Origin: Neoconidiobolus thromboides FSU 785
Taxonomy: Eukaryota; Entomophthoromycota; Entomophthoromycetes; Entomophthorales; Neoconidiobolaceae
Assembly (NCBI GenBank): GCA_025603075.1
Contig: MU626262.1
Coordinates: 1 to 64,000 of the forward strand
DNA length: 64,000 bases
Direction of reading: 5' to 3'
In this document: one piece after another, positions 3,993 through 62,991 of the stretch
How positions within the stretch are numbered: position 1 is the stretch's first letter
Layout of the letters: the number at the start of each line of letters is the position of its first letter
Program-made: the position numbers and the translations under genes
The notes under the pieces: model-generated
The model's input: only the letters and a program-made list of their open reading frames with translations
Databases searched by the model: none
What the model was told of the DNA's origin: nothing

Positions 3993-4096
3993 ATATGAGG
4001 ATTTTTTTTTTGGTTTCATTACTTTTTCCATTTTTTGAGCGTTATTTGAGCGGAAAGATTGTTAATAAAATTAAACAAAAAAATACATCCCCATAT
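3993..4096 (-). mobile_element. MITE-like element, copy 1
   Basis: About 104 bases ending ACATCCCCATAT. It carries the family cores TCATTACTTTTTCCATTTTT, GAGCGGAAAGATTG and GTTAATAAAATT. The other end reads ATATGAGGA. Strand is assigned arbitrarily so that the 'plus' form begins ATATGGGGATGTATTTTT. It sits just beyond the 5' end of the decayed F-box gene. Confidence 0.75.
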
Positions 4097-4125
4097 TATT
4101 GTTGTAGATTTATTTTTTAAACCTG

Positions 4126-4238
4126 ATATGGGAGTATTTTTTTGGCTTCATCTTCATCACTTTTTCCACCTTTTAAGTGCTATTTGGAATGGAAAATTTG
4201 TTAGTAAAATTCTTAAACACAAAAATACATTCCCATAT
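4126..4238 (-). mobile_element. MITE-like element, copy 2
   Basis: Same orientation as copy 1 and only 29 bases away. It begins GATATGGGAGTATTTTTTTGG and ends ACATTCCCATAT, with the core TTAGTAAAATTCTTAAACAC. The short open frame across it (4059-4250) is accidental. Confidence 0.75.
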
Positions 4239-4515
4239 CAAAGTAATTGAATATATTTTTTAAGTCAACAGTAAAAATTGAAATAATAATTAGTTGAGTC
4301 CAATGCTGTATCAATTTTGATTAAAAGTCACTAATTAATATAAATATCCTGTAATCAAGAGTATAATAACTTATGATATTAGAAGATGATAGAGGATATG
4401 AAATAAATATCAATATTATAAATCAAAAACAGATTTCTTTGTATTTAAAATTAACTCTTAAGACTTAATCAAATTCAATTAACTAATCAGATTAAAAACT
4501 CGTATTATTATAACA

Positions 4516-4516
<1 letters not shown>

Positions 4517-4554
<38 letters not shown>

Positions 4555-4555
4555 T
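4517..4555. repeat. (AAT)n microsatellite
   Basis: About a dozen uninterrupted AAT/ATA triplets between AT-rich flanks. Non-coding. Confidence 0.9.
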
Positions 4556-4811
4556 GTTATTTAATAGTAAATCAAATTAATAGCATGATTGCTTATTAAA
4601 CCAAGGAGAGAAAATGAGATATTAAAAAAAGTAACTGAAATTTTAAATTAAAATTAGCAGTAACTAAATTACAATAGCATAATTTAAGACAATTTCAACT
4701 AAATTTTAGTTAAAAGAAACGTTAAGATTGATTGATTGACTTTCGAAACTCTAAAAATAGTCAATAAAGTAAAGTTGAGAAAACAATAAAAACTCAAAAA
4801 AATTCAAAGAC

Positions 4812-4819
4812 TATAAAAG
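4812..4819 (+). promoter_or_regulatory. TATA-like box, SUN gene
   Basis: TATAAAAG lies 81 bases before the ATG at 4900, followed by a TATATATA tract. Confidence 0.35.
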
Positions 4820-4899
4820 TATATATACAATATTAATTTCTTTTTAACAAAACTAAACTTGATTTAAAAGAAAAGTTGATTTAAAATATTTCATTACGA

Positions 4900-6201
4900 A
4901 TGCTAATATCATTACCTATTGTATGTTTATTTATATATTTAAATCCCACTTATTCTTTAACTGATATTCCATTATCTATTAATGAAACAGATAATCGAAT
5001 TATTGATTATACATCCACCAATGTTACTTTAACTAACCCTTCTCAAACTGTATTAAAAGAAGAAGAGAATGGTGATAATTGGATCGATGATGATGATGAC
5101 GAGGACGATAATGATAATGATAGCGATAATGATAATGATAATGATAATGATAATGATGATGAAGGAGAATGGGATAGTAATGATAATAGACCACCCCATG
5201 AAAATATCGACTATCCATCAAGACCCTTATTAGAACAAATTCCAATTGATATTGATCCAGCATTGCCACCTCATGGTCATCGACCTAATAAACCTCATCA
5301 ACACCAACCAAAACCTTCACATCAGCCCAATCAAGTTCATCAACCAAATCACCATCATGGACATCATCATCATCCCCATCGACCCCATAGAAAAGGGATT
5401 TGTTCTTTTTCTAGAATTGAAAATGAAATTGGTGTATTGAGAATTGGTAATAGATATTCAAATGATTATAGTGGATTTGCATTAAAAAGAGGGAAATTTT
5501 GCAATCGAGGAGAATATTGTCCATATGCTTGTATAGAAGGTTATTATTCATCACAATATATTATTCAACAAAAACATGATTTAAAAATAATCAAACCTGG
5601 ATTATACTGTAATCGAAATTCAAAATTGGAGAAAGGTTTAAATTTACCTTTATGTTTAAAAGGTTATAATAATGTATATTTACGTAGTAATCAAAATAAT
5701 TTATTATGTAAAGCAGTTTATCCCGGGAATTTAGATACTTTAATACCAATTCCATTAGACTATAAAGTAAAATCATTAACTACAATCCCTTTCAATATAG
5801 ATTATAATACATTTTCACTATATTATTTAAATTTGCCTCAATTTAATGAAAAGTGTGAATGGGGTACTAAATATAAGCCAAATGGTAGTTATGCTCCATA
5901 TATAATTAAGATAGCTGAAAAGAATGACGGATTAATTGAATTTATATTGAAATGGAATATTAAGTTTATAGAAAACAATATGAAGTCCAAATATTATCCT
6001 TATTTATTAGATATTAATGTAGCTTGTTTAAACCCCAATAATAATAATCGAGCTTATTGTAATTCAAGATTATGTACATTTACAAGAGATAGTAATAATG
6101 ATTATGTTTGTAAATTATTGTTACCAAAATATTTAAAATTGGTAATTGATTTGAAATCAAATTATAATTTACTTTATGGTAAAAATAATACTTCAAATTA
6201 A
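4900..6201 (+). CDS. Secreted SUN-family cell-wall protein with acidic and His-rich linkers
   Basis: 433 residues, single exon. Residues 1-19 form a signal peptide (MLISLPIVCLFIYLNPTYS). Residues about 55-95 are an extreme Asp/Asn repeat. Residues about 120-165 are Pro/His-rich and end in HRPHRK just before the conserved domain. Residues about 168-425 match the fungal SUN family (Sim1/Uth1/Sun4 type, wall glucan-associated). The Cys framework includes CPYACIEGYY, GLYCN, LLCKAVYPGN, a CEWGT near the middle, PNGSYAPYI and a final CNSRLC. Known members localise to the wall or septum. Function here is by family only; the DN and His tracts are unusual additions. VPS23 converges from the right with a 121-base gap. 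Confidence 0.85.
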   Translation: MLISLPIVCLFIYLNPTYSLTDIPLSINETDNRIIDYTSTNVTLTNPSQTVLKEEENGDNWIDDDDDEDDNDNDSDNDNDNDNDNDDEGEWDSNDNRPPHENIDYPSRPLLEQIPIDIDPALPPHGHRPNKPHQHQPKPSHQPNQVHQPNHHHGHHHHPHRPHRKGICSFSRIENEIGVLRIGNRYSNDYSGFALKRGKFCNRGEYCPYACIEGYYSSQYIIQQKHDLKIIKPGLYCNRNSKLEKGLNLPLCLKGYNNVYLRSNQNNLLCKAVYPGNLDTLIPIPLDYKVKSLTTIPFNIDYNTFSLYYLNLPQFNEKCEWGTKYKPNGSYAPYIIKIAEKNDGLIEFILKWNIKFIENNMKSKYYPYLLDINVACLNPNNNNRAYCNSRLCTFTRDSNNDYVCKLLLPKYLKLVIDLKSNYNLLYGKNNTSN

Positions 6202-6322
6202 ACTATTTTATTTTATTTTTGTTTTTGTTTGTTTTTATTTTATTAAAAAAATAGTCGAATTATTTTTATTTTATTTTATTTTATTTTTGTTTTTACTTTG
6301 TTTTATTTTACTTTATTTTATT

Positions 6323-7919
6323 TTATGGTATAAATAACTTCTCTTTAATTTTGACTATCAACGCTCGTACCATAAATTGATCCCTTGCTAATGTTCTAAC
6401 ATTCTATTTTATTTATGTTTTATTAATAAAAATTATTATATCATTTATTATAATTATCTGTTATAATATATTACCTTAAAATAAACCTTTGAAGTAATTC
6501 TTTGAGAACTTAAGGCCATAGATAATTCATGATAAGTATCTTCAAATGCATTCTCCTCAGCAATTAATTGAACTAATCTAATTAAAATATTAGTATTAAT
6601 GTTAATTTATTTATTTAATAAATAAGTAAATAAATAAATTATTAATTAATTATTAATATACTTACTGTTTATACAATTTATTTTTATCAAAACTTAAATT
6701 ATTAATTGTAATTTCAGGTAATTGATTTAAATAATCACAATTTTTTTCTAATATATTGATATTATTGGTTAATATTTTAATATTATCATCAGATTGTATC
6801 TAAAAAAATAAAAATAAAAATAAAAATAAAAATTAATAAATATAATATACATTTAATAAATATAATATATATTATTTTTTCATATAATAATTTACTTACA
6901 TTAATCATTTGTAATTGTCTTATTGAATCATTAATATCATAATTATTTTTATTTAATTTTTGATTATCAATTTCAATTTTATTTCTTAATTGATTATTGG
7001 CTAAATTAAACTTTTCAAATCGATGACTTAATTTTTGATATAATTTTAATTGTAGTTGATTAATATCGCCAATCGGATTATCTAAATCCATCAAATTAAG
7101 TTGATTTTCTTTATTTATTAATATTGATGGTGGCCTTGGCGCTTCAAATAATTTAGGACTTTGCTGACTTTCATTACTACTTCCCTATATTATTTTAATA
7201 TAAAAAATTAAAGTTAATATTATTAATTAATTTTAAAATTAAACTAAATTAAATTATCCTTTACATGTGAATTAGACCTTTCATTATTAGATATATTTTT
7301 AGCCCTGTTTTTTAAATTACTCAAAGATATTCTAGGAGGAATAGGTGGAGGAGGTCGACTTAGTAATGGTGGATTAATAGAAAATATATTCTTCATTATA
7401 TTAATTAATTGTAACAAATTACAGTGATTAAATTTATATGGCCACTCAATTAAATAACTATGCAAAAAATAACCTTCTTGATTAACATGTTTACTAATTT
7501 GAATTTGCATATCTGCTGTTGGATTTAACATTGGTACCGGCGCTACTTTAGGATACTCTTTAGGTAGCCATATTTTGATTGGCATATGATAGACTCGTGA
7601 TTCATAATTGATGGCTATAGTACCAATTAATAATACTAAATATTCCGAAACACTGGGATTTAATGCTAATTTAAGGATAAGTAATTGTTTTTCTTTTATA
7701 TGTAAAATCATTTATTAGAATTGTATTTATTCTTACTTACTTGATAATGTAATGCTTGGTCGTAAAGTGGGATTTTTATTTATAGTTAATATAAGATGAG
7801 AATATACTGTATTATGTTCAGGATATATCTAATTTATTAATAATGTTAATTAATTATGCTTATAATCTTACTGAAGCTATCGAATTCCTTAGCCTATTTT
7901 CTTCAATTGTATGAGACAT
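6323..7919 (-). CDS. VPS23: ESCRT-I subunit Vps23/TSG101 (UEV domain)
   Basis: At least seven exons. Exon 1 reads MSHTIEENRLRNSIASI after splicing at 7870ish. The UEV domain (first ~150 residues) has LLIGTIAINYESRVYHMPI, KIWLPKEYPK and SKHVNQEGYF, the ubiquitin-E2-variant core that binds ubiquitin and PTAP motifs in multivesicular-body sorting. A proline-rich PPLLSRPPPPIPP segment follows, then a coiled coil at 7094-6900. The C-terminal steadiness box ends in NVRTLARDQFMVRALIVKIK when the last acceptor is taken after AAAATAG near 6387. Start: the ATG at 7919 is the first in frame with UEV helix 1. One intron (6800-6832) holds an AAAAAT-type tract. Confidence 0.88.
6800..6832. repeat. (AAAAAT)n tract in a VPS23 intron
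   Basis: Five or so tandem AAAAAT units on the plus strand, beside a splice donor of VPS23. Low complexity. Confidence 0.7.
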
Positions 7920-8402
7920 GATAATAATAATGATGATAATGATAATTAGTTAAAAAATTTATAGAAATAATATGAAAAATGATTATTTTTTGTAGAAATT
8001 CAATTTGGTCATTTCCAATTTATGAATATTTTGGTGCAATTATTAAGTTTAATTATAGAAATTAAAAATGATTGGCTTAAATTATTACAAATGATGAGTT
8101 TTTAAATTAGTTCATTAGCATTAATTGATCCCTTTTATATGGTAGAATTATAGCAATTTCAGTATGTAAATAAAATAGTACTGAGTATTATTTAAAATAA
8201 ATAATAGAATATTAAAAATCAATATCAGAATAAAATTCTTTAAATATTAAAAAAGTCCAAATCTATAATAATAAATTTAATATGTTTGTTTTTTATAAAA
8301 TAAAGCAAATCAAGTTAATAATACTCTACATGACATTAAAAATGAATTAACATGGAATAACTATATTCTTCAAAAGACACAAGTATCACACCTAAAAAGT
8401 AT
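7920..8402. other. Intergenic between VPS23 start and Cys-repeat protein end
   Basis: Both neighbours are on the minus strand, so this holds the VPS23 promoter and the 3' end of the upstream gene. A short ATG/ATA triplet tract lies at 7918-7945. No other feature. Confidence 0.5.
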
Positions 8403-11993: not shown

Positions 11994-12096
11994 ATATGGG
12001 GGTGTTTTTTTGGCTTCATTGCTTTTTCCATTTTTCAAGTGCTATTTGAGCCGAAAAATCGTTAGTAAAATTTTTAAACAACAAAATACATCCCTT
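11994..12096 (-). mobile_element. MITE-like element, copy 3
   Basis: Begins ATATGGGGGTGTTTTTTTGG and ends ACATCCCTTAT. Core GTTAGTAAAATTTTTAAACA and a degenerate GAGCCGAAAAA present. Confidence 0.75.
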
Positions 12097-12662: not shown

Positions 12663-12715
12663 CGGATTAGTGTTAACTTTAAGCTCTTATTTCTTTTTAG
12701 TAAGGATAAATTAAA

Positions 12716-20547: not shown

Positions 20548-21619
20548 TCTTTTTTTTAGTAAAAATGAAAAGTTTATTTTTTTTCTCTATTGGTTATGTG
20601 TACATGTCTAAAATAAAATTCCAAAATATAGCTTGAAAAATAATTTTGCATGTATCATAATGTATAAAATCAAATGTAAATAACTGACTTTTATGAGTTT
20701 ATCTATGGCTTCAATCTTGTTTTTATATACTCTAATGGATGCAAAATTATTTTTTAAATACTCCTCTAAAAATTTGCAAAAGCTTCTGAATAAACTTTAT
20801 ATTGGTCATATCTAGAATGTCATTATGAAATGGCCACACTAAAAATATATGTCCAAATAAGTCTTGAAATAATTACAGTATTTAATTATGGAAAATAAAT
20901 TTGCTTAGCAATGATAAGAATTATGAATACTATAAATTGAATAATTTGGTATTTGACTCATTGCTTTTAAATTATGGTTAATTAGGGGTACAATACTTTC
21001 AGCTGAATAATGGATACCTGCTGTTTTATGTCAGTAATCATCATGTATAAGCTGAAGGTGTAACATTAAACCACTTATTATGGGTATGTTTTTTTTGGTT
21101 TCATCACTTTTTCATTTTTAAACACTATTTAAGCAGAAAGATTGCTAGTAAAATCCTTTAAAAAAATATATCCCACTATAGTTTATTGTAGTTGAGCACA
21201 AGCAGGAACATCTATAATAACTAAAAGAAGCAAAGTTGAATATGAAAAACATTTTTTTATAGCTTTTTGAAACATGCAGTACTGTTACATAAACTGAAAA
21301 AGATGTTTAACTATGATATAACTAATAACTTTTCGAAACAATAATACACCTTTTTTAATAGCTCATAAATGTTCTTTATATGTTAAAACATTAAACTGAG
21401 AAGATAAAACATTAGAATATAAAAAGAATAATTAAAATTGTATTTAATTTTTATTTATTAACTTTGTTTATAATACTAATAATGTAAATATATAATGATT
21501 GTTATACTTGTATATAACTCCATACCAATTAAATCAATAAATTTGACCGATTTTATACTCTTGAATTGTAGCATAAAATAATCCATAAAAATACCTAAAA
21601 TGAGGCATTTGATATACTT
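20548..21619. other. Intergenic, one MITE-like copy
   Basis: AT-rich with no supported frame. Contains the element at 21077-21179 only. Confidence 0.5.
21077..21179 (-). mobile_element. MITE-like element, copy 4
   Basis: TTATGGGTATGTTTTTTTTG start, core AAGCAGAAAGATTGCTAGTA, end ATATCCCACTATA. More diverged than most copies. Confidence 0.65.
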
Positions 21620-22756: not shown

Positions 22757-22854
22757 ACGTAGGCGTTTCTCTCAGTTTCATTACTTTCTATTTTTGAGCA
22801 CTATTAAGCGGAAAAAATGTTAGTAAATTTCTTAAAAAAATACATCCTGATATA
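22757..22854 (-). mobile_element. MITE-like element, copy 5
   Basis: Left end eroded (GTAGGCGTTTCT). Core TAAGCGGAAAAAATGTTAGT and right end ACATCCTGATAT are clear. Confidence 0.65.
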
Positions 22855-22915: not shown

Positions 22916-23022
22916 ATATGGGAATGTTTTTTTTGATTTCATTATTTTTTCCATTTTTTAAGCGCTATTTAAGCGGAAAATTTGTTAGTAAAATTCTTAA
23001 ATACAAAAACACATCCCCATAT
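22916..23022 (-). mobile_element. MITE-like element, copy 6
   Basis: Well preserved: ATATGGGAATGTTTTTTTTG at one end, ACATCCCCATAT at the other, cores AGCGGAAAATTTG and TTAGTAAAATTCTTAAA. The open frame 22891-23091 is a by-product. Confidence 0.8.
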
Positions 23023-23897: not shown

Positions 23898-24005
23898 TAC
23901 AAGGGTGCTTTTTTTGATTTTGTCACTTTTCTTATCTTTTAAATGATATTTGAGTAGGAAGGTTGTTGGTAAAATCCTTAAACACAAAAATGTATCCCCT
24001 TATAT
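23898..24005 (-). mobile_element. MITE-like element, copy 7
   Basis: Left end CAAGGGTGCTTTTTTTG, core TTGGTAAAATCCTTAAACAC, right end GTATCCCCTTATAT. Diverged copy. Confidence 0.65.
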
Positions 24006-28802: not shown

Positions 28803-30176
28803 TCATGGAAATAAAAATAGAGGATGATTAGAATATTTGACTAACTTGTATCTATCGTGCTTTGGAATTATAATTAACTTTATGCTTTTAAAAGATTTCA
28901 ATATATTATCAAGGAAGATATCTAAATTGGAGCTCCAAAAATACCTAAATATTACATTAGTTAAATTGGAGCTCCTTACTATCTTATGATTTGAAAATGG
29001 TATATCAATATCAAACCGGCATCCGGATATGTCAAGGGTATACAAATTGGGACATGACATATATATAAAATTTAAAAAATCGACCCCTAAGGTAGTACTA
29101 TTAACTTTTAATGTTATTATATTGTTGCTTTTTTTTGGATAAATTTCCCTAATTAAAAATAATGGATTGTGATGTGTTAACATATCAAAATAGGTGATTG
29201 TTGGGATGCTAAATATTGAATATAAATGTTTGGATAAGACATTTTTGCAATATTTTAGTGTTAGTTGATTTAGATTTGGGAATATACCTTTGCTTATATC
29301 TTGGTCAATTAAATTACAACCATACAGCGTTAGCTTCTTTAAATTTGATATACCGTTAAATATCAATTTAGAATACTTTAAAATATAAAGCTCTTCAAGC
29401 TTTGGATAATTGTTTAAATCCATACGTATTTCTTTTAAACCTTGCACACCTACATATTCAATATGAAGTTGTTTTAGTTCCGCGAAATGTTTACTTAATA
29501 GCAAGTTAAAGTTGTTTAATGCAATATTACTATTAGTTAACTTGAGTTTCTTTAAATTATTTAATTTATCCAATAAGTCCCAGAAACATACGAAGTCTAT
29601 ATAATGAATATACTGCAGTGTTATTGAAGTAATGGTTGATGGTAAATAAGGTACTATGGACACTACAAAATAACCATCTGGAGAAATGACTTCTAAGTAC
29701 TTTAAATTTTGAAATATTTCTTTGGTACAATTACCACTATCAGAAAAGTAATCACCAATCTCCATGTTATTGGTCTGCTTAGTGTAATAAAGGCCGACTA
29801 ATGGGATGTCCCCAAAGTGTTCTTCATGCCTCAAATAGCCATCTAAAGGCAAATAAAGCTCCATGCAATTTGGATAGATCAACTTGTAAATTGATGCTTC
29901 TGAAAAAATTCTGAGATTTAATTGTTTAATATGTTGACCATATTTTTTGAAGCTCTTATTTATCGCTTTTTCATACCCATAAATAAAACTATGAACCATA
30001 CACTCCCATAGTATTGGATTTATTATATTTTTCCACTTTTTACAGCAGGTAAGTAGATTGACTTTATCTTTAACTGAGAGATGGTATAAAATTTCTCTAG
30101 TTGCTTTTTCTCCGAGGTTCTCAAGTTTGAAACTACTGCCCATATCCAAATCAAACAAAGTGGTAAGCCCAGTCAA
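28803..30176 (-). CDS. F-box/leucine-rich repeat protein (intact)
   Basis: Single exon, 457 residues; an in-frame internal Met (MGSSFKLENLGEKATREILY) aligns with the start of the other family members and may be the real start. The F-box includes EILYHLSVKDKVNLLTCC and KWKNIINPILWE. LRR units include LNNLKKLKLTNSNIALNNFN, NYPKLEELYIL, LKKLTLYGC, FPNLNQLTLKYC and CPNLYTLDISGC. Full-length homology to 800-2137. Expected SCF substrate-recognition subunit. A dead relative lies directly upstream (31267-32631, same strand). Confidence 0.85.
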   Translation of the reverse strand: MTGLTTLFDLDMGSSFKLENLGEKATREILYHLSVKDKVNLLTCCKKWKNIINPILWECMVHSFIYGYEKAINKSFKKYGQHIKQLNLRIFSEASIYKLIYPNCMELYLPLDGYLRHEEHFGDIPLVGLYYTKQTNNMEIGDYFSDSGNCTKEIFQNLKYLEVISPDGYFVVSIVPYLPSTITSITLQYIHYIDFVCFWDLLDKLNNLKKLKLTNSNIALNNFNLLLSKHFAELKQLHIEYVGVQGLKEIRMDLNNYPKLEELYILKYSKLIFNGISNLKKLTLYGCNLIDQDISKGIFPNLNQLTLKYCKNVLSKHLYSIFSIPTITYFDMLTHHNPLFLIREIYPKKSNNIITLKVNSTTLGVDFLNFIYMSCPNLYTLDISGCRFDIDIPFSNHKIVRSSNLTNVIFRYFWSSNLDIFLDNILKSFKSIKLIIIPKHDRYKLVKYSNHPLFLFP

Positions 30177-31266
30177 TTGTTTAGTATACTTATGCTTGAT
30201 TTACTTCAATATTTTCTTAAATCAAAATATAAGTTTGAGAACTAAATGCTAGTAAATTTGTGTTAACAAATTAGAAAAGCGAGTTCCATTTTGAGTTTTG
30301 TATTTTCAGTGTAGGATTTCTGCTTGAATAATTTAGTTATTAGCTAAGCTAAATTTTAAACATTAATATGAGTGTGCTTTTTTGCCAGAACTTTAGCGAT
30401 TAATTTTTAAATTTCATATTTAAAAAGTGAGCAACTAGTTGAAAAGAATAGTCATGTGTTAATTTGTTACGAATGCTTAATATGTACATTATATAATTCA
30501 AGGATTTTATCTCGAATTTAAATAGGCTTTTGAATTTATGCATACGCTACTTGACTAATTTGAATGTTTTTAGAAATTAAGCAAATCAGAATTTGCTCTC
30601 AGTACATTGATGATAACATTTATCATCAACAATAGCTTTATTTTCAAAACTCTTGTTACAATATGGGGATGTATTTTTATGTTTAAGAATTTACTAACAA
30701 TTTTTCCACTCAAATAGCACTTAAAAGATAGAAAAAGCGGTAGAACCAAAAAAAAACACTCCTATATTTTTATCTTTTTTCGAAGCTTTATGACCTCCAA
30801 GTACCTTATTCGACAAAATATAGAAGTGCAAGAAGTCGTAAATGTTGTGGAATTATAGCGTTAATGCTGGGTTTGAGGCTTTTCATTTTACTACCATTAA
30901 AATATTAATCAAATATTCCAAGTATATTTTGAATGGTAAACTGCAACATTATGGATAAAAATGTGAGTGATTTGGATGATGTTTTTAAAATATTTTAATA
31001 CTAAACATTTAGAAGATCAAGGTGTAGTATTTAATTACTCTGTATCAACCTAAGCTCCTCTTCAAAGTTGTAAAACTCTCCTTTAATACTCTAAAAATAT
31101 TTGAAATTTTGTTCACTTAAAAAAATCTTAATTGTGTAACTTTTTTATATCAATTTTCTTAAATAATAAGTGTGATATATCCTATTTAACTATTGTATCT
31201 AGAAACTAAACTTTAAATCAATATAAAATATATCTAATATTCTTTATTTAAAGCATTATTAAAAGG
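30177..31266. other. Intergenic, one MITE-like copy
   Basis: Promoter side of the intact F-box gene. Contains the element at 30661-30767. Nothing else seen. Confidence 0.5.
30661..30767 (+). mobile_element. MITE-like element, copy 8
   Basis: Clean left end ATATGGGGATGTATTTTTAT, cores GTTTAAGAATTTACTAACAA and TTTTTCCACTCAAATAG, right end ACACTCCTATAT. Confidence 0.8.
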
Positions 31267-32631
31267 CTAATAGCTCTCTGGCCTGGTATTACAGAAAGCA
31301 ATATGAGGATATACAGTATATTTAGCTAATACATACTTCTCATGTCTTGGAATTGGAATTGGAATTGAATTTGTCCGTTTGAAGTGCCCTAGTATGTAAT
31401 CTATAAAGTATGTGGAATTTTTAGAAGATCGTTTATTAAGGAATAACACATTAGTCAAATAAGGGTCATTTATTATTCTATTGTTTGAAAATGGTATATG
31501 GGTGTCAAAATTACAGACCACCACTTCTAGGTTGCATAAATTGGGGGATGAAGTATATAAAAAGCTCAGAAAATCAACTCCTAAAGTGGGCTTTCAAACT
31601 GATAACGTTATTATGCTATTCCTTTTTTGGGGGTAGATCTCTTTAATCAAAAACGATAAATTATGTATTGACAAATTCAAGTAAATGATTGTTGATATAT
31701 TGGATATTGGATATAACTATTGAGACAAAACAGTATACCAAGTCTTTAAAGATAATTGATTTAGTTTTGGGAGCATTACTGTTTGCAACTTGATTCATTA
31801 AATTGCAGGCGATTAATGTTAATTCTTTCAAGTTTGATACACTATTAAGTTTTAATTTCGAATAAGCAGAAATTGCGAACGATTCAAGCTTTGAGTAGTT
31901 GTTTAAATCTACAATTATTTCTTTTAAGCCTCTTGCTGATACAGAACTAAAACAGAAGTCCTCTAAGTATGGAAACTGTCTACTCATTAAAAAAGTATAA
32001 TCTTTTAAGTTCGTATAAACTGAGGTTAGTTTGGGCACTTTTAAGTTGTCAAATTTATTTAATACCTGCTCTAAACATGAAATTGGACTGTAAATACTAT
32101 TGTTTGAAACTATCAATGAAGAAATGCTTGGTGGTAGGTGGGGAATAGTTGATATTACAAAATAAACATTTAAATCACCAACTTCCAAATCCCTTAAATC
32201 TTGAAGAATCCCCTTGACACGAATTTTATGAATAGGAATACATTCCTCAATTGGTATACTATCAATTCAAGTACTATAGTAAAGACACACTAATATCATA
32301 TGTTCAAAATATTCTCTATTTTTTAGGTAATCATTTAAGGATGAGCAGAGGTTCTTACTATGTGATAGCTTGATAAATTAATTGGCATATTTAAATGGTC
32401 TCCAAGGTCTAAATATTTGATATGGTGACCATATTTTCGAAAGCCGTTATACATCCCCATATTATAGTGTTGATTACACCTTGGAGTTATGTCTTCCTAT
32501 AGTATTGGCATAACCACTTTGTTCCATGCTCTGCACCATAAGAGTATATCAATTTTTTCTTTACCTGAGAGATGATGTAGAACCTTTTTAATTACTTTTC
32601 TTCCAAGGCTCTCAAGCTTAAGGTTATTCAT
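31267..32631 (-). pseudogene. Recently dead F-box/LRR gene
   Basis: The reverse strand starts MNNLKLESLGRKVIKKVLHH, continues with a recognisable F-box, and hits an in-frame TAG exactly where live genes have Trp in PILWED. It then continues as LRR fragments: 32188-31661 (VGDLNVYFVISTIPHLPPSI, FDNLKVPKLTSV, YSKLESFAISAYSKLKLNS) and 31524-31267 (NLEVVVCNFDTHIPFSNN). At least two frame changes and several stops. Length and order still match the 445-457-residue family, so the loss is relatively recent. Confidence 0.8.
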
Positions 32632-32949
32632 TTTTATGTGAATTCAAAGTGAAATAAGAGTTTCTTTATCCTCAATCTATATAAAGCTCAACCCAACTTG
32701 ATGTTTCCACATACTAAAACAGTAAATTACAAATCTAATTTTAGTAAGTGTGACTTTCGTTAAACAAAGTTCAATCTTTTGTGAGGTTTACTACAATTAT
32801 ACTCAATTTATACATTCTGACAGTGCAAAATTATTTTTCATTACTTTTCAAAAAATATTTAGAAACTCCAAAAAACTACAATTTATCTTACCAATCAACT
32901 TTATCTCTTGTTAAATTAAACAAAATAAAGTAGACTTTTTTTATCGAAA
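32632..32949. other. Promoter interval, dead F-box gene / RRP8
   Basis: Divergent spacer; no specific motif called. Confidence 0.4.
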
Positions 32950-35740: not shown

Positions 35741-35847
35741 ACATGTAGATGTATTTTTTTATTTAGGGATTTTACTGATAATAGCCTTTCCACACAAATA
35801 GTACTTAAAGAATGGAAAAACCAATAAAACCAAAAACACCCCCATAT
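35741..35847 (+). mobile_element. MITE-like element, copy 9
   Basis: Left ACATGTAGATGTATTTTTTT, core AGGGATTTTACTGATAATAG and CACAAATAGTACTTAAAGAA, right ACACCCCCATAT. Confidence 0.7.
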
Positions 35848-35927: not shown

Positions 35928-36160
35928 ATGTTTGATGAGAAGGTTGATAAACTTTTAAATCAAAATGGAATCCAAATTAGGATTTGCTTAGATAGCTATT
36001 ACTGTTACAGTGATAAAGTGGTTACTGATCTAGTTAGAAACAACCTTGAAATTATTTTCATTATACTTGTAATGAGAATCACTATGAACTTTTTAAAGTA
36101 TATGAAACCCAAACCCTGATTTAGAATACAACCCCAATTTAATCATTAATAAAAAGGTGT
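35928..36160 (+). pseudogene. Decayed copy of the Cys-rich repeat protein
   Basis: Plus-strand frame beginning MFDEKVDKLLNQNG contains ICLDSYYCYSD and VVTDLVRNNLEIIF, matching ACIDSYCCFGD and DIVTNNLENFF in the 61151-61774 gene. A frameshift then moves the homology to CNENHYELFKVYE, matching CNESYCKVFKG. Only one repeat unit is present, and there is no tail. Confidence 0.65.
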
Positions 36161-36619
36161 GAAATCTGGTACTCAGGGTTTGGAGTCAAGAACAGCTATT
36201 GCTGGGTTGACTACACTATAAGTCGAAAGGTCTTAGTTTATGTGACTAAGATAGACTTGGATTATCAGGAATAGCACGTAATAGGTTACAAGCTATATAA
36301 GACAAATAGAATAGACAATACTAATGTAAAATCTATGTAAAATACTATTAAGAAAACTTAGTGGCTTTATTAAATGTTCGAGATATCAGGAAATAATTCA
36401 GTTAAAAGCCTCGAACTATTATACTCTGTAAACTCTTTTATACTCTGAAAAGTATAAATATCAAAATGAGAGGATAATATTCTTTTGGATGGAGCTAGAA
36501 ATTCTCATAACAAATCAAAATAAGAACATGGGATTGATTTCCTCTGAGCTCGAGAACACAACAGCTTAGGCGATTGTTATGTTATAATTAACCATGGGAC
36601 TGACAAAGCGATATTTCAC

Positions 36620-36725
36620 AATGGGGATGTATTTTTATGTTTAAGAATTTCACTAACAATTTTTCCGCTTAAATAGTGCTTAAAAGATACAAAAAGTAAT
36701 GAGTCCAAAAAAAACATCCCCATAT
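36620..36725 (+). mobile_element. MITE-like element, copy 10
   Basis: AATGGGGATGTATTTTTATG left, TTTTTCCGCTTAAATAGTG core, AACATCCCCATAT right. Very well preserved. Confidence 0.8.
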
Positions 36726-36798: not shown

Positions 36799-36904
36799 AT
36801 TGGGGGTATTCTTTTTGGTTTCATTACTTTTTCCATTTCTCAAGCACTATTTGAGCGGAAAACTCGTTAGTAAAATTCTTGAACACAAAAATACACCCTC
36901 ATAT
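36799..36904 (-). mobile_element. MITE-like element, copy 11
   Basis: Opposite orientation to copy 10, 73 bases away. Core TTGAGCGGAAAACTCGTTAG, right end ACACCCTCATAT. Confidence 0.75.
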
Positions 36905-37352
36905 TAAAACTAAGCATAACAAAATTTTTATTGTAATTATTAAATGTAAATATTAAAATATAAAAACAATGTTTTTTGTAACTAAAAAGTAAAAATTTTT
37001 AACTATAGTTATAACTATATTTTTATATATAACGTTTCAATACAATAAATTTTTTCAAACTGTTTTTAGCATTGTTTTTTTTAGTAAAATTATTAAGCTT
37101 CTCATATAAATGTTTTATATAACTCATAGCCTATACACATTATTTTTATATTTTATATTTGTTTTAATTATATAAAATATACAAGTATAGAATACTTATT
37201 AATAAATTATATAAAATAATAAAAATAAAGTATAATAATTATTCAAATAACCAGAATACAAATTATAAAACTAGTTTTTGTAATTTATATTATTTTGTTA
37301 AATTATTAAAAGCTATTAAAACTTTTAAATTAATTTACATAAGTAACATTAT

Positions 37353-37444
37353 TCTATTTAAGAATTTTACTAACAATTTTTCTACCCAAATAGTACACCT
37401 AAAAGATGAAAAAATAAGGAAGCCAAAAAAACATCCCAATATAA
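37353..37444 (+). mobile_element. MITE-like element, copy 12 (left end lost)
   Basis: Begins inside the element at TATTTAAGAATTTTACTAAC and ends ACATCCCAATAT; the terminal ATATGGGGATG is missing. Confidence 0.65.
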
Positions 37445-37825: not shown

Positions 37826-37900
37826 CATGTATCTTTTAAACACTCTTTAAGCGGAAAAATTGTTAGTAAAATTCTTAAACATAAAAACACACCCCCATAT
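37826..37900 (-). mobile_element. MITE-like element, copy 13 (truncated)
   Basis: Only the right two-thirds remain: TTTAAGCGGAAAAATTGTTA, then GTAAAATTCTTAAACA and ACACCCCCATAT. Lies 113 bases from a tRNA-Ser gene. Confidence 0.7.
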
Positions 37901-38013
37901 ACTAATATTGACTTTATTAAAATTTCATCTCAGTACTCCTGTAGTTAACTATATATTTAAAAGTATGTTAAATATAAAAAAATTATTTTATTATATAGTC
38001 TATAAAAAGTTAA

Positions 38014-38095
38014 CGACAGCTACAGGATTTGAACCTGTGCGGGGAAACCCCATCAGATTTCAAGTCTGACTCCTTAACCACTCGGACAAACTGTC
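38014..38095 (-). tRNA. tRNA-Ser (anticodon UGA), copy 1
   Basis: The 82-nt reverse strand starts GACAGTTTGTCCGAGTGG (acceptor, A box). The anticodon loop is CTTGAAA (anticodon TGA), followed by a serine-type long variable arm (GGGGTTTCCCC) and a T arm with GGTTCAAATCC. The acceptor 3' side AGCTGTC pairs over 7 bp with one G-U, and discriminator G suits serine. No intron. A T run lies just downstream (37998-38008). Identical to copy 2. Confidence 0.95.
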
Positions 38096-45227: not shown

Positions 45228-46338
45228 ACCGATATTAAAATTGGTATTAAATTATTAAAATAAGATTAATACAAAGTTAAAAAGTAACAACATAAGTCAA
45301 AATGGAAAGCTTTTTTAGTTTTATTATGGTGTTATAATTCAAATTCAGTTATAAAATTCTTTTAAAAATAGTAGTTAACGCTTTAGATCGACACACTTTA
45401 TGCAAATTCAATTGGCTAGATTCCAAATTGATTGTATAATAGTTAAATTTAAGGTTATGATTTTTAAACGTGGTAAGTTACTAATCTAATTCAATAAAAT
45501 CTAAGCAATATTTAAAATAGTTTAATTTGTTTTATTTAAAAATAAATGTTATCTTATAATTACGTGAATTGTTGCTTTTTGATAACATTTTCATTATAAT
45601 AATGACAAATTAAAATATTATAAATACTGATCAGAATTAATAGAATAAAATATCAATTTGGAATGTTCTTAAGTGACTGCTCTATTTTTATATCAGTTTT
45701 TTATTCTTTGGTAAAAAGTTATTTTTAAATTATGATAATTGAATTCTAGCACTAGTGTTCTTGTTTGTGCTATTATTACTCAAAATGCACTATTATTTGG
45801 TTATAAATAAATACTACTAAACATTTATTTGTTTATTTATTTGAAATCCATTTATAATGTTAATGAGAATAAATATAAACAAATATAGTTTATAAAATTA
45901 GTTCCTAATTATTAAATGGTATGATAAACTCGATTTTGACTAAGAGAATCCGAATAATGAAGTTTTTTTAATTATAGCACTAATATTTTTATCGAATGTT
46001 AAACTTGGAGTTATTTATAAATATTTAAAATAGTTTAATTATTAACTACCTTACAAATATCTACTTCAACCTAATAAGAACAAAACGAAATAGGATATGA
46101 ACTTGATTGTACTCTTTAAATGCTATGATAGACACAATTGTTAATAATAAAAGTAGTAAAACCCACTATAATAACTACAATCAAATGGAATATGAATTTA
46201 TAAAAACCTAACCTTTACAGAAGAAATAACACTAAAAATAGTAAATGGATGTCCATTTAAGTTTGGTGTTATTGGAGTATTTTAAATAGGTGGTTCCCAA
46301 TTGCAAAAAATTGGCTACAGTCTAAATCTAGATTGAAA
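45228..46338. other. Intergenic between TRIM37-like gene and tRNA-Ser
   Basis: AT-rich, no supported frame or repeat. Confidence 0.5.
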
Positions 46339-46420
46339 CGACAGCTACAGGATTTGAACCTGTGCGGGGAAACCCCATCAGATTTCAAGTCTGACTCCTT
46401 AACCACTCGGACAAACTGTC
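46339..46420 (-). tRNA. tRNA-Ser (anticodon UGA), copy 2
   Basis: 82 nt, identical in every base to copy 1, including the discriminator G. Downstream on the reverse strand a T6 run lies near 46301-46306, a plausible Pol III terminator. Flanks differ from copy 1. Confidence 0.95.
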
Positions 46421-47494
46421 TTAAACTGATAAATATTCCCTAGAATTATTAATTTTAATCTAATAATTTACTCTACAACAATTATAATAAAGGATTATAC
46501 TAAAAACCAGTATGCTAGTATTATCTAAGTATAAACATATGGGGGATACATTTTTTTGTTTATGAATTTTACTAACAGTCTTTCTGCTCAAATAGCACTT
46601 AAGAATGGAAAAAGTAATGAAATCAAAATACATCCCCATATTTCTAATATGCCTCTAAATTTTATGGATTATATTATAATAATCATCTTTATAACTTTTT
46701 ATTATAAACTCAACTTTTAAGAAGTTATTGAAATTCATTTATTTTCTGAGATTTTAATTCAATTGATACAACTTTTTTTATAAATACATATATTCTAGTT
46801 TTTAATATTATAATTGTTTGTTGAATATTATTGATTTTATTAAATCATTTTTAATGCAGTTATGTCATTTAAAGTTAGGCTATTTTATAAATAAAATAGT
46901 AAGTATTAATATCAAAAAATACAATTTTTTAAAGTTAATTGAATTTTTAAGTACATTAAAATATTAATATACTTAAACGATTTAAAATCAGTATACTCAT
47001 TGTATTTGTTTTCTATTCCTATTATGATTATAATAATATAGTTACTTTTTCAGTATCTAGTAAATTAGTTTTAAGAAAGAGGTTTCAGTATTAGAACTTT
47101 TCCCAGTAAAAACAAATCCGCAAAAATAAAACATTAAGAAATTCTTAAGCCCCTCACTTAATAACTCATTCAGAATTTACTTTTGTTTATATGCTAAATT
47201 TAGTGCTATTTCTCCTTATTGTTAAATTAAGATAAAAGCTTCCCTTATTTACTATCAATAGTTTAAATAGTTCAATATTCAAAAAATATTTATCTACATA
47301 AAAACTTCAAATTTATATTAATTTATCACTAACCAATGGTTAAAACGATAACAAACAAGCTTTAAAATTGAACTAGGACAATAAAACGAAGAATATAACT
47401 TTATATTGAACTCAGAAAAACCGAAAAAAATAAAAAGGGACACTTTTTTAATATTAAGGATGCTGAATACAAAACATAAAAAAAAACGAAAACT
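46421..47494. other. Intergenic with one MITE-like copy
   Basis: Contains the element at 46537-46641. The remainder is AT-rich and unrecognised. Confidence 0.5.
46537..46641 (+). mobile_element. MITE-like element, copy 14
   Basis: ATATGGGGGATACATTTTTT left, GAATTTTACTAACAGTCTTT and CTGCTCAAATAGCACTTAA core, ACATCCCCATAT right. 117 bases from tRNA-Ser copy 2. Confidence 0.8.
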
Positions 47495-56001: not shown

Positions 56002-56516
56002 TATTTTTAACTAATCGAAATTTTAAAATAAAATCTTTATCTATTTATACTGTTTTATCTTATTTTGTTGGTTTTTTACACTAAAACCTTTTAAGCATTA
56101 AGACATTATTTATTTTTGAGCTAGTCATTAAGATTTGTTCGAATTAAATGTTAAATGATGATAAGATATTCAGAAGTAAATATTCTTAGGTATGGTAGTC
56201 TTATACCTCTGAACCTTTTATTTTCATATAAATATTATCATGCTTATACCAATGTTCTATTGGAAATCAAATGAAAAAACCTTTTAACTTGTAAAATAGT
56301 GATCTTAAAAATAAGGCCATATGATTGAGTTTAAATATCTAAATTTGTTAGAAAAAATAAAATTAAACCATGTAGGGATGTATTTTAAGAATTTTATTAA
56401 CAATCTTTCCGCTCAAATAATGCTTAAAAAATGGAAAAAGTAATGAAACCAAAAAACATCCTCATATAACATATAATTATTTATTCTAATGCTTCTTTCT
56501 AAAATTTTAGATTAAC
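56002..56516. other. 3' intergenic between ERG6 and EF-G, with one MITE-like copy
   Basis: Convergent gene ends; element at 56370-56467 lies 50 bases from the EF-G stop codon. Confidence 0.5.
56370..56467 (+). mobile_element. MITE-like element, copy 15
   Basis: TGTAGGGATGTATTTTAAGA left (about 8 bases shorter than others), core AATCTTTCCGCTCAAATAAT, right AACATCCTCATAT. Confidence 0.75.
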
Positions 56517-59088: not shown

Positions 59089-59696
59089 AGTTTCTATATT
59101 CCCTTCTTTTTTCTATTTCTATTATGTTTTCAAAAAAAAGATAACTTAGTTATTTTGATTTTTTTTAATTTCTAGCTTCGAACTTTTCCCCAAAAATCGA
59201 GTTTTTTGTTGAATTTTATTGGTTAAATTTTATTTGGCTTTCTAATGAAATCAAGCTTTTTTCATATTAAAATGAAAATTAAATATTAAATATTATGCCC
59301 AACAATAGCTAATTATATTACATAAAATTTACATTGCTTTAATGTTCATATAACTATAGATTTTTGATTGATGAGTTGTACATTATTTTAAAGTAAAATA
59401 CTATCTTATACTACTCAAAAAAGGATAAACTAATACCGATCAATATTATTCTCATTAAATTATATAAGTTACTTTATTGATAATTAAATACTTTTAATGA
59501 AATGTTGATGTGCATTAAAATGACCATGATTGTATGACTGTAATTTAAAATAAAAATATGAGAGGAAATATTATTGAAAAAGGAATAACTCACACTAAAA
59601 TTTAAGAAGTACTATATGTTTAAATATTTTTCTTTACGACATTTTAACTAATATAAAAAATCCCTTTAATTGTATTGAATTTATGAAATTCAAAAT
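59089..59696. other. Intergenic upstream of mEF-G
   Basis: AT-rich, no gene or repeat seen. Confidence 0.4.
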
Positions 59697-60420
59697 CTAA
59701 CATTTAATTTCCATATCAGATAAGTCAGTTTGAGATCCTGGTACAATACCATGTTGAGAAGCACGAGTAAATAAACTATAATAGAATAAGATTGAAATTA
59801 AAGCTTTAAAAAATAAGTTACTCTGGTGTACATATTTTCTTGAACCCAATCTTTACAGGCTCTGCTTCTAAAAGACTAAGCAAAAAATAAGTAAATCTTA
59901 ATTTAAAAATCTGTACACAAGTTACCGAATACGAGCTCTTTCTTGGGCTGATTTCAACATAATAACTTGCTTCTGTTTGGACTCTTCTTCGCTTTCTTGA
60001 TGAAATTCAATCCAGCGGGTGATTGGATGATGGCCCTATTAAAAATTTAGTGTAAATTACATTTATTATTTGATCCTATCTAGTTACTTCTGAAAAAAAG
60101 GTGGCGTCAAATTTAGACCAAGCATAGAAACCGGCAATTACATAAATAGAGCGTTTCCACCATGGACTGAAAAAGGTTTCTATAAATGAAAAATAAACAA
60201 TATTCATTTGTAGTTTCAATCTATTGTATTACCCTCTGGATACTTTTCTTCAGTTTTATTCTCACTTTCTGTTGACCCAAATCTCTTGAAAGAGGTAGCA
60301 GATAATAAATTTCGGTTTAGTGACCTTACGCCTAAGGTTGAAATCTAATATTTTTGCTTTAATATGGTATTTCCCTTTTTATTCTTTATCTTTTACTTTG
60401 TTAATATTTAATCCTTTCAT
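59697..60420 (-). CDS. Probable mitochondrial inner-membrane protein, complex I accessory subunit-like
   Basis: Multi-exon, about 165 residues. Exon 1 MKGLNINK splices to ISTLGVRSLNRNLLSATSF, giving an Arg/Ser-rich mitochondrial-type N-terminus. WWKRSIYVIAGFYAWSKFD is one membrane segment. HPITRWIEFHQESEEESKQK starts a charged helix ending ARIR. The C-terminus has SQHGIVPGSQTDLSDMEIK. The single TM, charged helix and PGSQxDLS-like end recall the fungal NUXM/17.8-kDa subunits of NADH:ubiquinone oxidoreductase, but I rely on recollection of that pattern. Mitochondrial location is more secure than the exact subunit. Confidence 0.5.
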
Positions 60421-61150
60421 CTTAAAATTTTGTTAAAATGAATTTTGATTGATTTTGTAATGATCAATCTCAATCTAATCATTTTTTAAACTATGTCCCA
60501 TAAGTTTTAGGGTTAATTTTTATAAATTATCTGGAAATTTTTAGCTGAAAATATCCGTTCTATGTAAATAATTTAAAATGAATAAGTAATAGTTGAGCTA
60601 ATGTTTGATGATTTGTATGAAGCATTCTTAGTTTTATACTATATGTATTTATATTAATTTTAATTTTATCATCCTATTCAACTAGCTAGGCTAAAATAAT
60701 ATAAATGTTCTTGTTTCAAAAGTTTACTAAAATTTTCTAAATTTTTCAAGCTTTATGCTACATAAAATATGGCCAAATCACTGAAGTGAAAAAGACAACC
60801 CTGTATAAAACTGTATAAACTTTATAAAAAATTTACAAGAGGAATGTGTAAAATATTCAAGTGATACGATGTGCATTTTCATGCTAATATTATATAGCAA
60901 CTATATTACATAGAAGACATATTTATGTCATATATACGAAGTTGACGTTTTTTATAAACATAGCTTCATGCTAAATATTCTTTATAACATAAATAAGAAA
61001 AATTATTATTCAGAAAAGGTTTAACAAGAAAATTCATTTAAAAATAATATAAGTGGTAATTTTTAATGCTACATCATGATAAAATATAAAATAAAATAAA
61101 GGCATTTATTTATTAAAAACATAGAAAAATAGCTAACAAAATATTTTTAT
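60421..61150. other. AT-rich intergenic region
   Basis: Nothing recognised apart from the flanking gene ends. Confidence 0.45.
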
Positions 61151-61774
61151 TCAAAGGATAAAGTTACATAATAAAGAAATCGAAAAAACAAAAGCCAACT
61201 TTGCACTAATAAATGTGTTAGCATTATTCGCTGAAGAGCTACTTGGGTTTGGTATACTTGAGCTTGATTTACTTTGACTTGACCCATTTTGACTTGATTT
61301 ACCTTCATCTAGTTTACTTTCAAACTGGTGATCATTTCCTTTAAAAACTTTACAACATGATTCGGTACAAATATAATAATAAAACTTGTTCAGATCATTT
61401 TTAATGATATCGTCAGAAATCGGACTATCGCCAAAACAGAAATAATTACCTTTGGTTATGACATTTTCAGCTAAGTCGTATTTAAAATCTTTTTTGAAAT
61501 CATCAGCTGATAGATCAATATTGTATTCTTTTGGATTACTTTCATTTGGTCTACTTTTATAACGTTTATTATTTCCTTTAAACACTTTACAATAAGACTC
61601 ATTACAAATAGAATAAAAAAAATTTTCAAGGTTGTTAGTGACTATATCGTTGCTTATTGAACAGTCACCAAAACAGCAATAGCTATCTATACATGCTATT
61701 GATTCACTCGAACTTTGGTTAAAAAATGTCCTCAAATTGTAATCTGATAATTTAATAGTGTAGTTTTTTTCCAT
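61151..61774 (-). CDS. Two-repeat cysteine-rich protein with GPI-like C-terminus
   Basis: 207 residues from the first ATG (61774); the frame continues upstream without ATG, so a 5' exon with a signal peptide may be missing. Two tandem units of about 85 residues: the first has SDYNLRTFF, ACIDSYCCFGD, DIVTNNLENFFYSICNESYC and KVFKGN; the second has SADDFKKDF, NYFCFGD, DIIKNDLNKFYYYICTESCC and KVFKGN. A Ser-rich stretch (SSQSKSSSSIPNPSSSSA) leads to a hydrophobic end (AKLAFVFSISLLCNFIL), as in GPI-anchor signals. I do not recognise the domain. Two degraded relatives occur in the window. Confidence 0.65.
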   Translation of the reverse strand: MEKNYTIKLSDYNLRTFFNQSSSESIACIDSYCCFGDCSISNDIVTNNLENFFYSICNESYCKVFKGNNKRYKSRPNESNPKEYNIDLSADDFKKDFKYDLAENVITKGNYFCFGDSPISDDIIKNDLNKFYYYICTESCCKVFKGNDHQFESKLDEGKSSQNGSSQSKSSSSIPNPSSSSANNANTFISAKLAFVFSISLLCNFIL

Positions 61775-61804
61775 ACATTTACTTTGAAGTAAGTAAAAAG
61801 TCAA

Positions 61805-62885
61805 TATTTGACAAATTATTGATTCTCAAGTTATTTATATTTCTAATTTATGATGATGTAATGTAACAACCAATAGAACATCAAGATAGTCACTGGACTG
61901 TGACTAGCTTCATTTTTGACCATACTGTTCTATTTACTATTTTACTTTTATGAGTTTACCAAACTAATTTTTATGGTGCTAATGTCATATGAGATTAATG
62001 AAAAAGTGATTTTTTATAAAATCTTGGAAACTAAAGTTGGGTTCTAAAATTGTCAAATTCGATCCTAACTTAAATTCGAAACTAATTGTATTATTCCAAG
62101 TATTTGATGGAATATCGTGTATAAAGTAAGCTGCCATTAGAAAAGCATTTTGGTTTTTACCTTATTATGTTATTTTCAAAAAAGATTCCACTTTAAATTA
62201 TGATATGATAGCATAGCTGATAAGCCGAGTAAAGCATTGATGTGATAAAAAAATGTGTTACTCATCCTTCAAAAAACATACATAGTTGGACGTGTTAAAT
62301 TGTGCTGTTTGTAATAAGTAGTAAGAAAGCTCATTTTTTAGAATCCAAAAAACCACTCCACTTTAATAATCTATGTTAACTATCTAGTATATCTTTTAGT
62401 ATAAGTAATACTCAATAGGCATCTTCATAAATATCTAGAAAGCTGAAAAGCTGGTATTAAGCTAAATTCTATTTTCTAATGCAATAAATCATCTGTTGAG
62501 ATTTGCTTACAGACTTTACTATTGAGTATACATTTTATAGCAACTTCAATATTGAATTGATATAATTTTTCGACACTATTCTTCAAAAGTTTTCTATCAA
62601 ATCCCTCACATTATATTCGAGAGGTTCTACAGAAATAGAAATGCTTCTTTTTATCTGACAACAATGTAAGCATTGTTTTTTATAGCATTAAAATAAATGT
62701 GTTATTTTGATAGATGCTTAAATAAAACTATTTTATCTTGAAGTATAATAGTTGCATATTTTTTGATACGAGATCATGCTTAAACAGAAGGATTTAAAGA
62801 TCAGTATTTTTATTTTTATAAAAATAAATTATATATTAAGGAAACAGAAGGAAACAAGACCATTTTTCCATCAACTATGAAATTA
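61805..62885. other. Spacer between the two Cys-rich copies
   Basis: AT-rich. The part just upstream of the gene (61895-61965) resembles 63500-63565 upstream of the broken copy, so the duplication included promoter sequence. Confidence 0.5.
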
Positions 62886-62991
62886 ATATGGGGGTATTTG
62901 TTTGATTTCATTACTTTTTCCATTTTTTAAGCGCTATTTAGGTGGAAAAACTTGCTAGTAAATTCTTAAACAAAAAAGTACATACTTATAT
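62886..62991 (-). mobile_element. MITE-like element, copy 16, at the 3' end of the broken Cys-rich copy
   Basis: ATATGGGGGTATTTGTTTG start, core TTAAGCGCTATTTAGGTGGA and GCTAGTAAATTCTTAAAC, end ACATACTTATAT. Family homology of the adjacent coding copy stops at its edge. Confidence 0.75.

What the first reader, a model, noticed from the sequence alone, without database searches (positions are those of the whole stretch)
3993..62991. A ~105-bp non-coding inverted-repeat element present at least 16 times in 64 kb
Sixteen copies (listed as features) share ATATGGGGATGT-type ends that are inverted repeats of each other, plus conserved interior cores (TTAGTAAAATTC, TTTTTCCATTTTT, GAGCGGAAAAA). They occur in both orientations, have no coding capacity and are all in non-coding DNA. 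The size and ends fit a MITE, with a DNA transposase elsewhere. I could not fix a target-site duplication by eye, so transposition is inference. The interior is as conserved as the ends, which is unusual for old MITEs and could mean recent spread or a selected function.
Basis: partly seen in the sequence, partly recalled or inferred. Interest (0 to 1): 0.75.

Follow-up and report, generated by a model that had tools for sequence, protein, structure and literature searches.

The report
Abundant 99-bp fungal MITE family
The repeated 99-base sequence is a tiny non-coding 'jumping gene' present in thousands of copies in a small fungal genome; it carries clear scars of cut-and-paste insertion, so it is a well-founded but fairly ordinary mobile element whose moving enzyme has not been found.

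Summary
Profile searches find 16 clear copies and one degenerate copy in the window. With 200 kb of another contig the total is 57. The density, one per 4.5 kb, implies about 5,000 copies in the 23.1-Mb genome; one search flagged 4,253 candidates. The host is probably a fungus near Massospora. The element is 99 bp, GGGGATGT...ACATCCCC. Empty sites lacking the element exist. So it is a MITE. The interior is as conserved as the ends because both decayed equally (11.9%, 12.0%). Hairpin pairing is kept no better than chance. None of 56 copies overlaps an ORF of 150 aa or more by over 30%. A non-coding element of about 1.1 kb shares the 8-bp end. No transposase gene was found. Ends and duplications resemble Sola2 elements (PMC3627910); membership is not shown. 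Ordinary kind, unusually abundant (my judgement).

The parts
3996..4091 (+). MITE copy
   Evidence: nhmmer 8e-21; flanks ATAT/ATAT
4128..4233 (+). MITE copy
   Evidence: nhmmer 4.7e-21; flanks ATAT/ATAT
11996..12094 (+). MITE copy
   Evidence: nhmmer 4e-26; 1 of 4 flank bases alike
21080..21174 (+). MITE copy
   Evidence: nhmmer 1.2e-16; flanks TTAT/CTAT
22761..22847 (+). MITE copy, ends eroded
   Evidence: nhmmer 3.8e-13; below the score cut of the flank table
22918..23017 (+). MITE copy
   Evidence: nhmmer 1.2e-24; flanks ATAT/ATAT
23901..23998 (+). MITE copy
   Evidence: nhmmer 8.9e-18; flanks TTAC/TTAT
30666..30764 (-). MITE copy
   Evidence: nhmmer 8.3e-22; flanks ATAT/ATAT
35748..35845 (-). 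MITE copy
   Evidence: nhmmer 6e-18; flanks ATAT/ATGT
36158..36617 (+). 460-bp LTR-like repeat next to a MITE; this copy supplies empty sites for MITE insertions at C54:30000 and C1:193867
36624..36723 (-). MITE copy
   Evidence: nhmmer 4.6e-24; 2 of 4 flank bases alike
36801..36898 (+). MITE copy
   Evidence: nhmmer 3.8e-24; 1 of 4 flank bases alike
37348..37438 (-). MITE copy, 3' end eroded
   Evidence: nhmmer 2.8e-15; flanks ATAT/ATGT
37828..37895 (+). partial MITE copy (model positions 32-99)
   Evidence: nhmmer 6e-13
46543..46639 (-). MITE copy
   Evidence: nhmmer 7.8e-21; 0 of 4 flank bases alike in the frame used
56375..56465 (-). MITE copy
   Evidence: nhmmer 2.6e-19; flanks ATAT/ACAT
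60705..60803 (-). degenerate MITE copy
   Evidence: nhmmer 7.5e-10, E 0.013 with a later profile
62888..62984 (+). MITE copy beside a duplicated gene segment
   Evidence: nhmmer 1.6e-20; flanks ATAT/ATAT
63656..63687 (-). possible solo left end of the MITE (about 30 bp)
   Evidence: E 4.5, not significant; GAGGATGTTTTTTTTAGTTTCA seen by eye

Best explanation
It is a miniature inverted-repeat transposable element (MITE): a 99-bp non-autonomous DNA transposon with GGGGATGT ends. It was spread by a cut-and-paste transposase acting in trans that makes a 4-bp staggered cut, prefers ATAT (mostly AWWT), and so duplicates 4 bp. Shown: ends, 4-bp duplications, empty sites, genome-wide copies, decay without detectable constraint, and a longer non-coding element with the same 8-bp end. 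Inferred: the cut-and-paste mechanism, and that the transposase was Sola2-like (my estimate about 50%). No transposase gene was found.
For: 16+1 copies in the window, 57 with C1:1-200000. Flanking DNA is unrelated between copies. Identical 4-bp flanks in 29 of 51 copies against 14.8 shuffled, maximum 21 of 500. With the frame re-set from the inverted repeats alone, 23 of 38 against 9.5 (maximum 16 of 2,000 shuffles). Of these 38, 13 are ATAT/ATAT; 11 have ATAT on one side only and so mismatch; of the 14 with ATAT on neither side 10 are identical, 1.2 expected (this subset leaves out the 11 mismatches). Copies closest to consensus: 17 of 20 perfect (frame chosen with help of the flanks, so lenient). 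Empty sites: the C54 insertion against window 36270-36412 and two places in C1; the C1:193867 insertion (ATAA on both sides) against window 36450-36597 and C1. Nested MITE in L081: the two halves of its host match E57 932-1115 and 1112-1293, overlapping by 4 bp. One copy is 98-99% identical to five others. AWWTGGGGATGT followed by a run without T: 46 places against 0 for the reversed pattern; of 25 read, 18 belong to the longer family.
Against: No transposase-coding element with these ends was found in what could be read. 28 of 57 unselected copies lack a demonstrated perfect duplication (22 failed and 6 were below the score cut), as decay would give but as chance could too. ATAT is common in a 26%-GC genome, so single ATAT/ATAT pairs are weak evidence. 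The resemblance of the MITE interior to the 1.1-kb element is weak beyond the 8-bp end. Five of 23 perfect duplications are not AWWT.
Confidence: 0.95

Rival explanations
1. It is a selected element (a regulatory site, a hairpin RNA or a chromosomal structural element) kept in non-coding DNA by function, which would explain the conserved interior.
For: The consensus folds into a hairpin over its whole length (-31.1 kcal/mol as RNA against -14.5 for 100 simple base shuffles). None of 56 copies overlaps ORFs of 150 aa or more by over 30%. The interior is as conserved as the ends.
Against: Pairing in 80 aligned copies is 2,345 of 2,652 cells, against 2,345.6 in shuffles; double changes keep the pair in 24 cells and break it in 15, against 25.5 and 10.3. 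Divergence is 11.9% at ends and 12.0% inside. The CpG at model 47-48 has become CA or TG in 38 of 80 copies. A transition excess is also seen in an unrelated repeat (385:122). Insertion scars and empty sites exist.
Confidence: 0.03
2. The same MITE reading, but the transposase belongs to a superfamily other than Sola2, known or undescribed, that makes 4-bp duplications.
For: No transposase was found, so the superfamily rests on end and duplication features only. Other superfamilies with 4-bp duplications are known (recalled: Ginger, Chapaev).
Against: TTAA-specific groups (piggyBac and Kolobok, as stated in a passage of PMC9587614) do not fit: TTAA is not among the 23 perfect duplications. Ginger (TGT ends) and Chapaev (CAC ends) do not fit GGGG ends (recalled, no call).
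Confidence: 0.45
3. The copies are by-products of segmental or tandem duplication rather than transposition.
For: Copies are somewhat clustered: 10 gaps under 300 bp in C1 against 3.1 expected at random, 3 in the window against 1.4.
Against: Aligned 25-bp flanks show no shared sequence beyond the 4-bp site. Neighbouring copies are in mixed orientation. Empty sites are precise.
Confidence: 0.01

Closest known systems
Sola2 DNA transposons (Fanzor-bearing Sola2 families of Dictyostelium fasciculatum and Polysphondylium pallidum, PMC3627910)
   Same: Short inverted ends (12-13 bp in D. fasciculatum, imperfect 21 bp in P. pallidum; here 13 of 14 counting GGGGATGTNTTTTT) and 4-bp AT-rich duplications (AWWT; ATAT, AAAT, ATTT named there; here 18 of 23 perfect ones fit AWWT). 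Passages read.
   Different: Those elements are kilobases long and carry a Sola2 transposase or its remains and Fanzor; this one is 99 bp and non-coding. Their end sequences are in a figure I could not see. No Sola2 transposase was found here. ATAC, ATAA, GTAT, AAGT and ATCT duplications (one each) do not fit AWWT.
MITEs as a class
   Same: Short, non-coding, inverted ends, target duplication, thousands of copies, AT-rich targets outside long ORFs.
   Different: Nothing basic; copy density (about one per 4.5 kb) seems high for a 23-Mb genome (judgement, no survey done).
The 1.1-kb GGGGATGTCYAAATTRGTTT element of the same genome (this work; L081 and relatives)
   Same: Same 8-bp end (the right end of L081 has one mismatch); 46 places with this end found preceded by AWWT because the pattern required it; non-coding.
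   Different: Longer inverted repeat (21 bp at 90%), different interior, older (mostly 72-80% identical between copies). Similarity to the MITE beyond the end is weak. The outer 4-mers of L081 are not identical.

Membership tests
MITE | Terminal inverted repeats | tested here: met
   GGGGATGT/ACATCCCC in the consensus of 51 copies
MITE | Target-site duplication of fixed length | tested here: met
   4 bp; 29 of 51 identical, 14.8 expected, with no excess at 2, 3 or 5 bp; 23 of 38, 9.5 expected
MITE | Empty sites at paralogous loci | tested here: met
MITE | Short, non-coding, high copy number | tested here: met
   99 bp; 4,253 candidate places, 40 scored; 56 copies in about 252 kb without N
MITE | Related autonomous element | tested here: inconclusive
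   A longer non-coding element with the same 8-bp end was found, but no coding one; the assembly could not be read whole
Sola2 | 4-bp AT-rich (AWWT) target duplication | tested here: met
   of 23 perfect duplications 13 ATAT, 3 AAAT, 1 ATTT, 1 AATT fit AWWT; ATAC, ATAA, GTAT, AAGT, ATCT (1 each) do not
Sola2 | Short inverted repeats beginning 5'-GRG (recalled) | tested here: inconclusive
   GGGG fits, but the GRG rule is recalled and no Sola2 end sequence was available
Sola2 | Sola2 DDD transposase in the mobilising element | tested here: inconclusive
   None found; no Sola2 profile was at hand; a guessed family PF25273 gave nothing here or in the 14 control genomes
piggyBac / Kolobok | TTAA duplication | tested here: not met
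   TTAA is absent among 23 perfect duplications
Selected RNA hairpin | Compensatory changes keeping the stem | tested here: not met
   2,345 observed paired cells against 2,345.6 shuffled

The most novel reading that the evidence does not exclude
The family, with its 1.1-kb relative, is the trace of a transposase lineage not yet described from entomophthoralean fungi (Sola2-like, or a new one with GGGG ends and mostly AWWT duplications). Its elements may serve as preferred landing sites for a 460-bp LTR-like repeat that was repeatedly seen inside or beside them.
Probability: 0.2. Interest if true: 0.5.

Novelty: new member of a known kind. Interest (0 to 1): 0.3.

Why it matters
One 99-bp element of about 5,000 copies (my estimate) would make up roughly 2% of a compact 23-Mb fungal genome, about one per 4.5 kb. 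It is therefore likely a main source of insertional variation there, and a handle for finding the transposase, or its loss, in a fungal group whose DNA transposons appear little studied (my impression; listings show no title or abstract start on this family).

Tried and rejected
Autonomous partner. Pattern GGGGATGTNTTTTTNNNVVV gave 82 places against 0 control. Eight were fetched: seven are ordinary or indel-bearing MITE copies (three by profile, four by eye), and L053 is an end running into a microsatellite. The other 74 were seen only as 20-base strings. Pattern AWWTGGGGATGTNNVVV gave 46 places against 0. 25 were fetched (14, 3, 8). I sort them as 18 with ends of the longer family, 4 MITE copies with altered ends (L069, L084, L087, L088) and 3 others (L085, L086, L090: chance in or near genes, or against the 460-bp repeat). 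The remaining 21 were not fetched; one of them, window 32446-32462, was seen only as a motif. The consensus of 770 positions of the longer element has 24-30 stops in each frame. At GGGATGTCYAAATTRGTTT (19 places) one pair of facing ends gave the full element on C40 (L081).

Solo ends in the 264 kb: no convincing long element. Pfam PF25273 was a guess and said nothing. A 37-base core with both CpGs intact has only 3 exact copies.

Hairpin function was rejected. Strong subfamily structure is not seen: the lowest linkage P among 399 tests is 7e-5. Derivation of the MITE from the ends of the 1.1-kb element: best z 3.5 for the left side; for the right side z values are scattered (highest 3.1) with no clear pattern; so not claimed. 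An Rfam scan of the window gives only two tRNAs. Literature: the listings show no title or abstract start on this family; most listed papers were not opened. Opened, passages only: PMC3627910, PMC9587614, PMC5753468.

Rows dropped: 6 of 57 copies (score under 50) from the flank table; 5 of 85 hits from the 80-row matrix, of which 25 rows come from 20 stretches chosen for high consensus identity (55 are unselected); 18 of 56 copies with poorer inverted repeats from the strict test.
Full report
What is there. A profile built from nine copies finds 17 copies in the 64-kb window and 57 in the window plus the first 200 kb of contig C1. The window is the start of contig C5 of a 23.1-Mb, 392-contig assembly; the window is 26% GC. 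Gene pieces in the window place it among early-diverging fungi: the mitochondrial EF-G piece matches an unnamed jgi protein at 71% and named fungi such as Dimargaris, Spiromyces, Coemansia, Racocetra and Rhizopus at 69-71%, and a Sec61 exon is 86% identical to Massospora cicadina over 87% of the query. So an entomophthoralean fungus is likely, on one gene piece; the species is not established.

Copy number. The interior word TTAGTAAAATTC occurs 2,069 times against 32 for its reversal. A search with the consensus flagged 4,253 candidate places, of which it scores only 40. By density (56 copies in about 252 kb without N) I estimate about 5,000 copies, roughly 0.5 Mb or 2% of the genome. Extrapolating from the 12-mer (14 exact words for 56 sampled copies) would give about 8,000, so the figure is good to within a factor of two.

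Anatomy. The aligned copies (51 of 57; six low-scoring ones left out) give a 99-bp unit GGGGATGT...ACATCCCC. Outside it the columns are not conserved except for a 4-bp ATAT-like site. That site is a target-site duplication. The 4-mers on both sides are identical in 29 of 51 copies against 14.8 after shuffling partners (highest of 500 shuffles 21), while 2, 3, 5 or more bases show no such excess. Re-setting the frame from the inverted repeats alone, 23 of 38 are identical against 9.5 (highest of 2,000: 16). Of the 38, 13 are ATAT on both sides, 11 have ATAT on one side only and therefore mismatch, and 14 have it on neither; of these 14, 10 are identical (AAAT three times; ATAC, ATTT, ATAA, GTAT, AAGT, AATT and ATCT once each) against 1.2 in shuffles among them. 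Of 20 copies picked for closeness to consensus, 17 have perfect duplications (frame chosen with help of the flanks).

Empty sites. Joining the flanks of each copy with one 4-mer and searching the fetched DNA found sites that lack the element. The insertion at C54:30000, flanked by ATAT, has unfilled counterparts in three copies of a 460-bp repeat, at window 36270-36412 and C1 193375-193529 and 193642-193770, where the site is a single CTAT; the insertion at C1:193867, flanked by ATAA on both sides, has counterparts with one ATAA at window 36450-36597 and C1 193204-193352 (small gaps beside the second site). In L081 a MITE interrupts a longer element; the two halves of the host align to E57 932-1115 and 1112-1293, overlapping by 4 bases. 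Other hits come from neighbouring MITEs or AT-rich repeats and are not used. Together these show insertion, not segmental duplication. In L030 three copies stand in a row, two of them exactly 4 bp apart (coordinates), as expected if the ATAT left by one insertion is a good target for the next.

Age and constraint. Unselected copies differ from consensus by 11.9% on average (6-24%). One young copy is 98-99% identical to five others, so activity reached fairly recent times. Ends and interior have decayed equally, 145 of 1,222 and 486 of 4,044 sites. The consensus can fold into a full-length hairpin, but in 80 copies pairing is what independent decay gives (2,345 of 2,652 cells; shuffles 2,345.6). 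The CpG at model positions 47-48 has become CA or TG in 38 of 80 copies, with only one double change, which suggests methylated CpG (inference). Transitions outnumber transversions 533 to 117, and in an unrelated 460-bp repeat 385 to 122. None of 56 copies overlaps ORFs of 150 aa or more by over 30%, as selection against coding insertions or a preference for AT-rich targets would give.

The partner. Searching for the same end with a different continuation, AWWTGGGGATGTNNVVV, gave 46 places against none for the reversed pattern. Of 25 read, 18 have ends of a second, longer family, GGGGATGTCYAAATTRGTTT and relatives; 4 are MITE copies with altered ends and 3 are others. One complete copy of the longer element (C40:115751-117539, L081) has both ends, a 21-bp inverted repeat at 90%, and two MITEs and a 460-bp repeat nested inside; without these it would be about 1.1 kb (my subtraction). 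Its own outer 4-mers, ACAT and GTAT, are not identical, so a target duplication of this element is not shown. The consensus of its left part is non-coding. Similarity between it and the MITE beyond the 8-bp end is weak. So at least two non-autonomous families use the same end; the transposase gene was not seen in the parts that could be read.

How it works (inferred). A transposase bound the GGGGATGT ends, cut the element out and inserted it at 4-bp staggered AT-rich targets; repair left the 4-bp duplication. By ends and AWWT duplications the nearest known group is Sola2: dictyostelid Sola2 families have 12-13-bp or imperfect 21-bp inverted repeats and 4-bp AT-rich duplications (AWWT in D. fasciculatum; ATAT, AAAT, ATTT in P. 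pallidum) (PMC3627910, passages). Five of the 23 perfect duplications here do not fit AWWT. The GRG start of Sola2 ends is recalled, not read. Because the transposase was not found, I do not file it as Sola2.

Verdict. A genuine, well-supported MITE family, of a known kind. I saw no earlier report of this family in the listings; subscription journals and Repbase were not searched.

Noticed in passing
window 36158-36617; L081; L057; L060; L065; C1 193039-193861: A 460-bp solo-LTR-like repeat (TGTGAAATC...GATATTTCACA in the window), 554 candidate places genome-wide; the 40 best, the window copy included, are 95-100% identical to it. It was seen inside or within a few bases of GGGGATGT-ended elements in both orientations, but those places were fetched for their GGGGATGT ends, so the association is untested.
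   Followed up: partly
C40:115751-117539 (L081): A full-length longer non-coding element with the MITE's 8-bp end, carrying two nested MITEs and one 460-bp repeat.
   Followed up: partly
C3:313327 (L084): A snap-back MITE whose two halves are near-inverted copies of the left half, flanked by AAAT on both sides (by eye).
   Followed up: no
window 61278-61692 and 63030-63444: A duplicated gene segment (415 bp) whose second copy has a MITE at its edge, overlapping the end of a 123-aa ORF.
   Followed up: partly
window 38012-38095 and 46337-46420: Two identical tRNA genes 8.3 kb apart.
   Followed up: no
window 28871-30143 and 31442-32648: Duplicated region whose first copy holds an F-box/leucine-rich-repeat ORF.
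   Followed up: no
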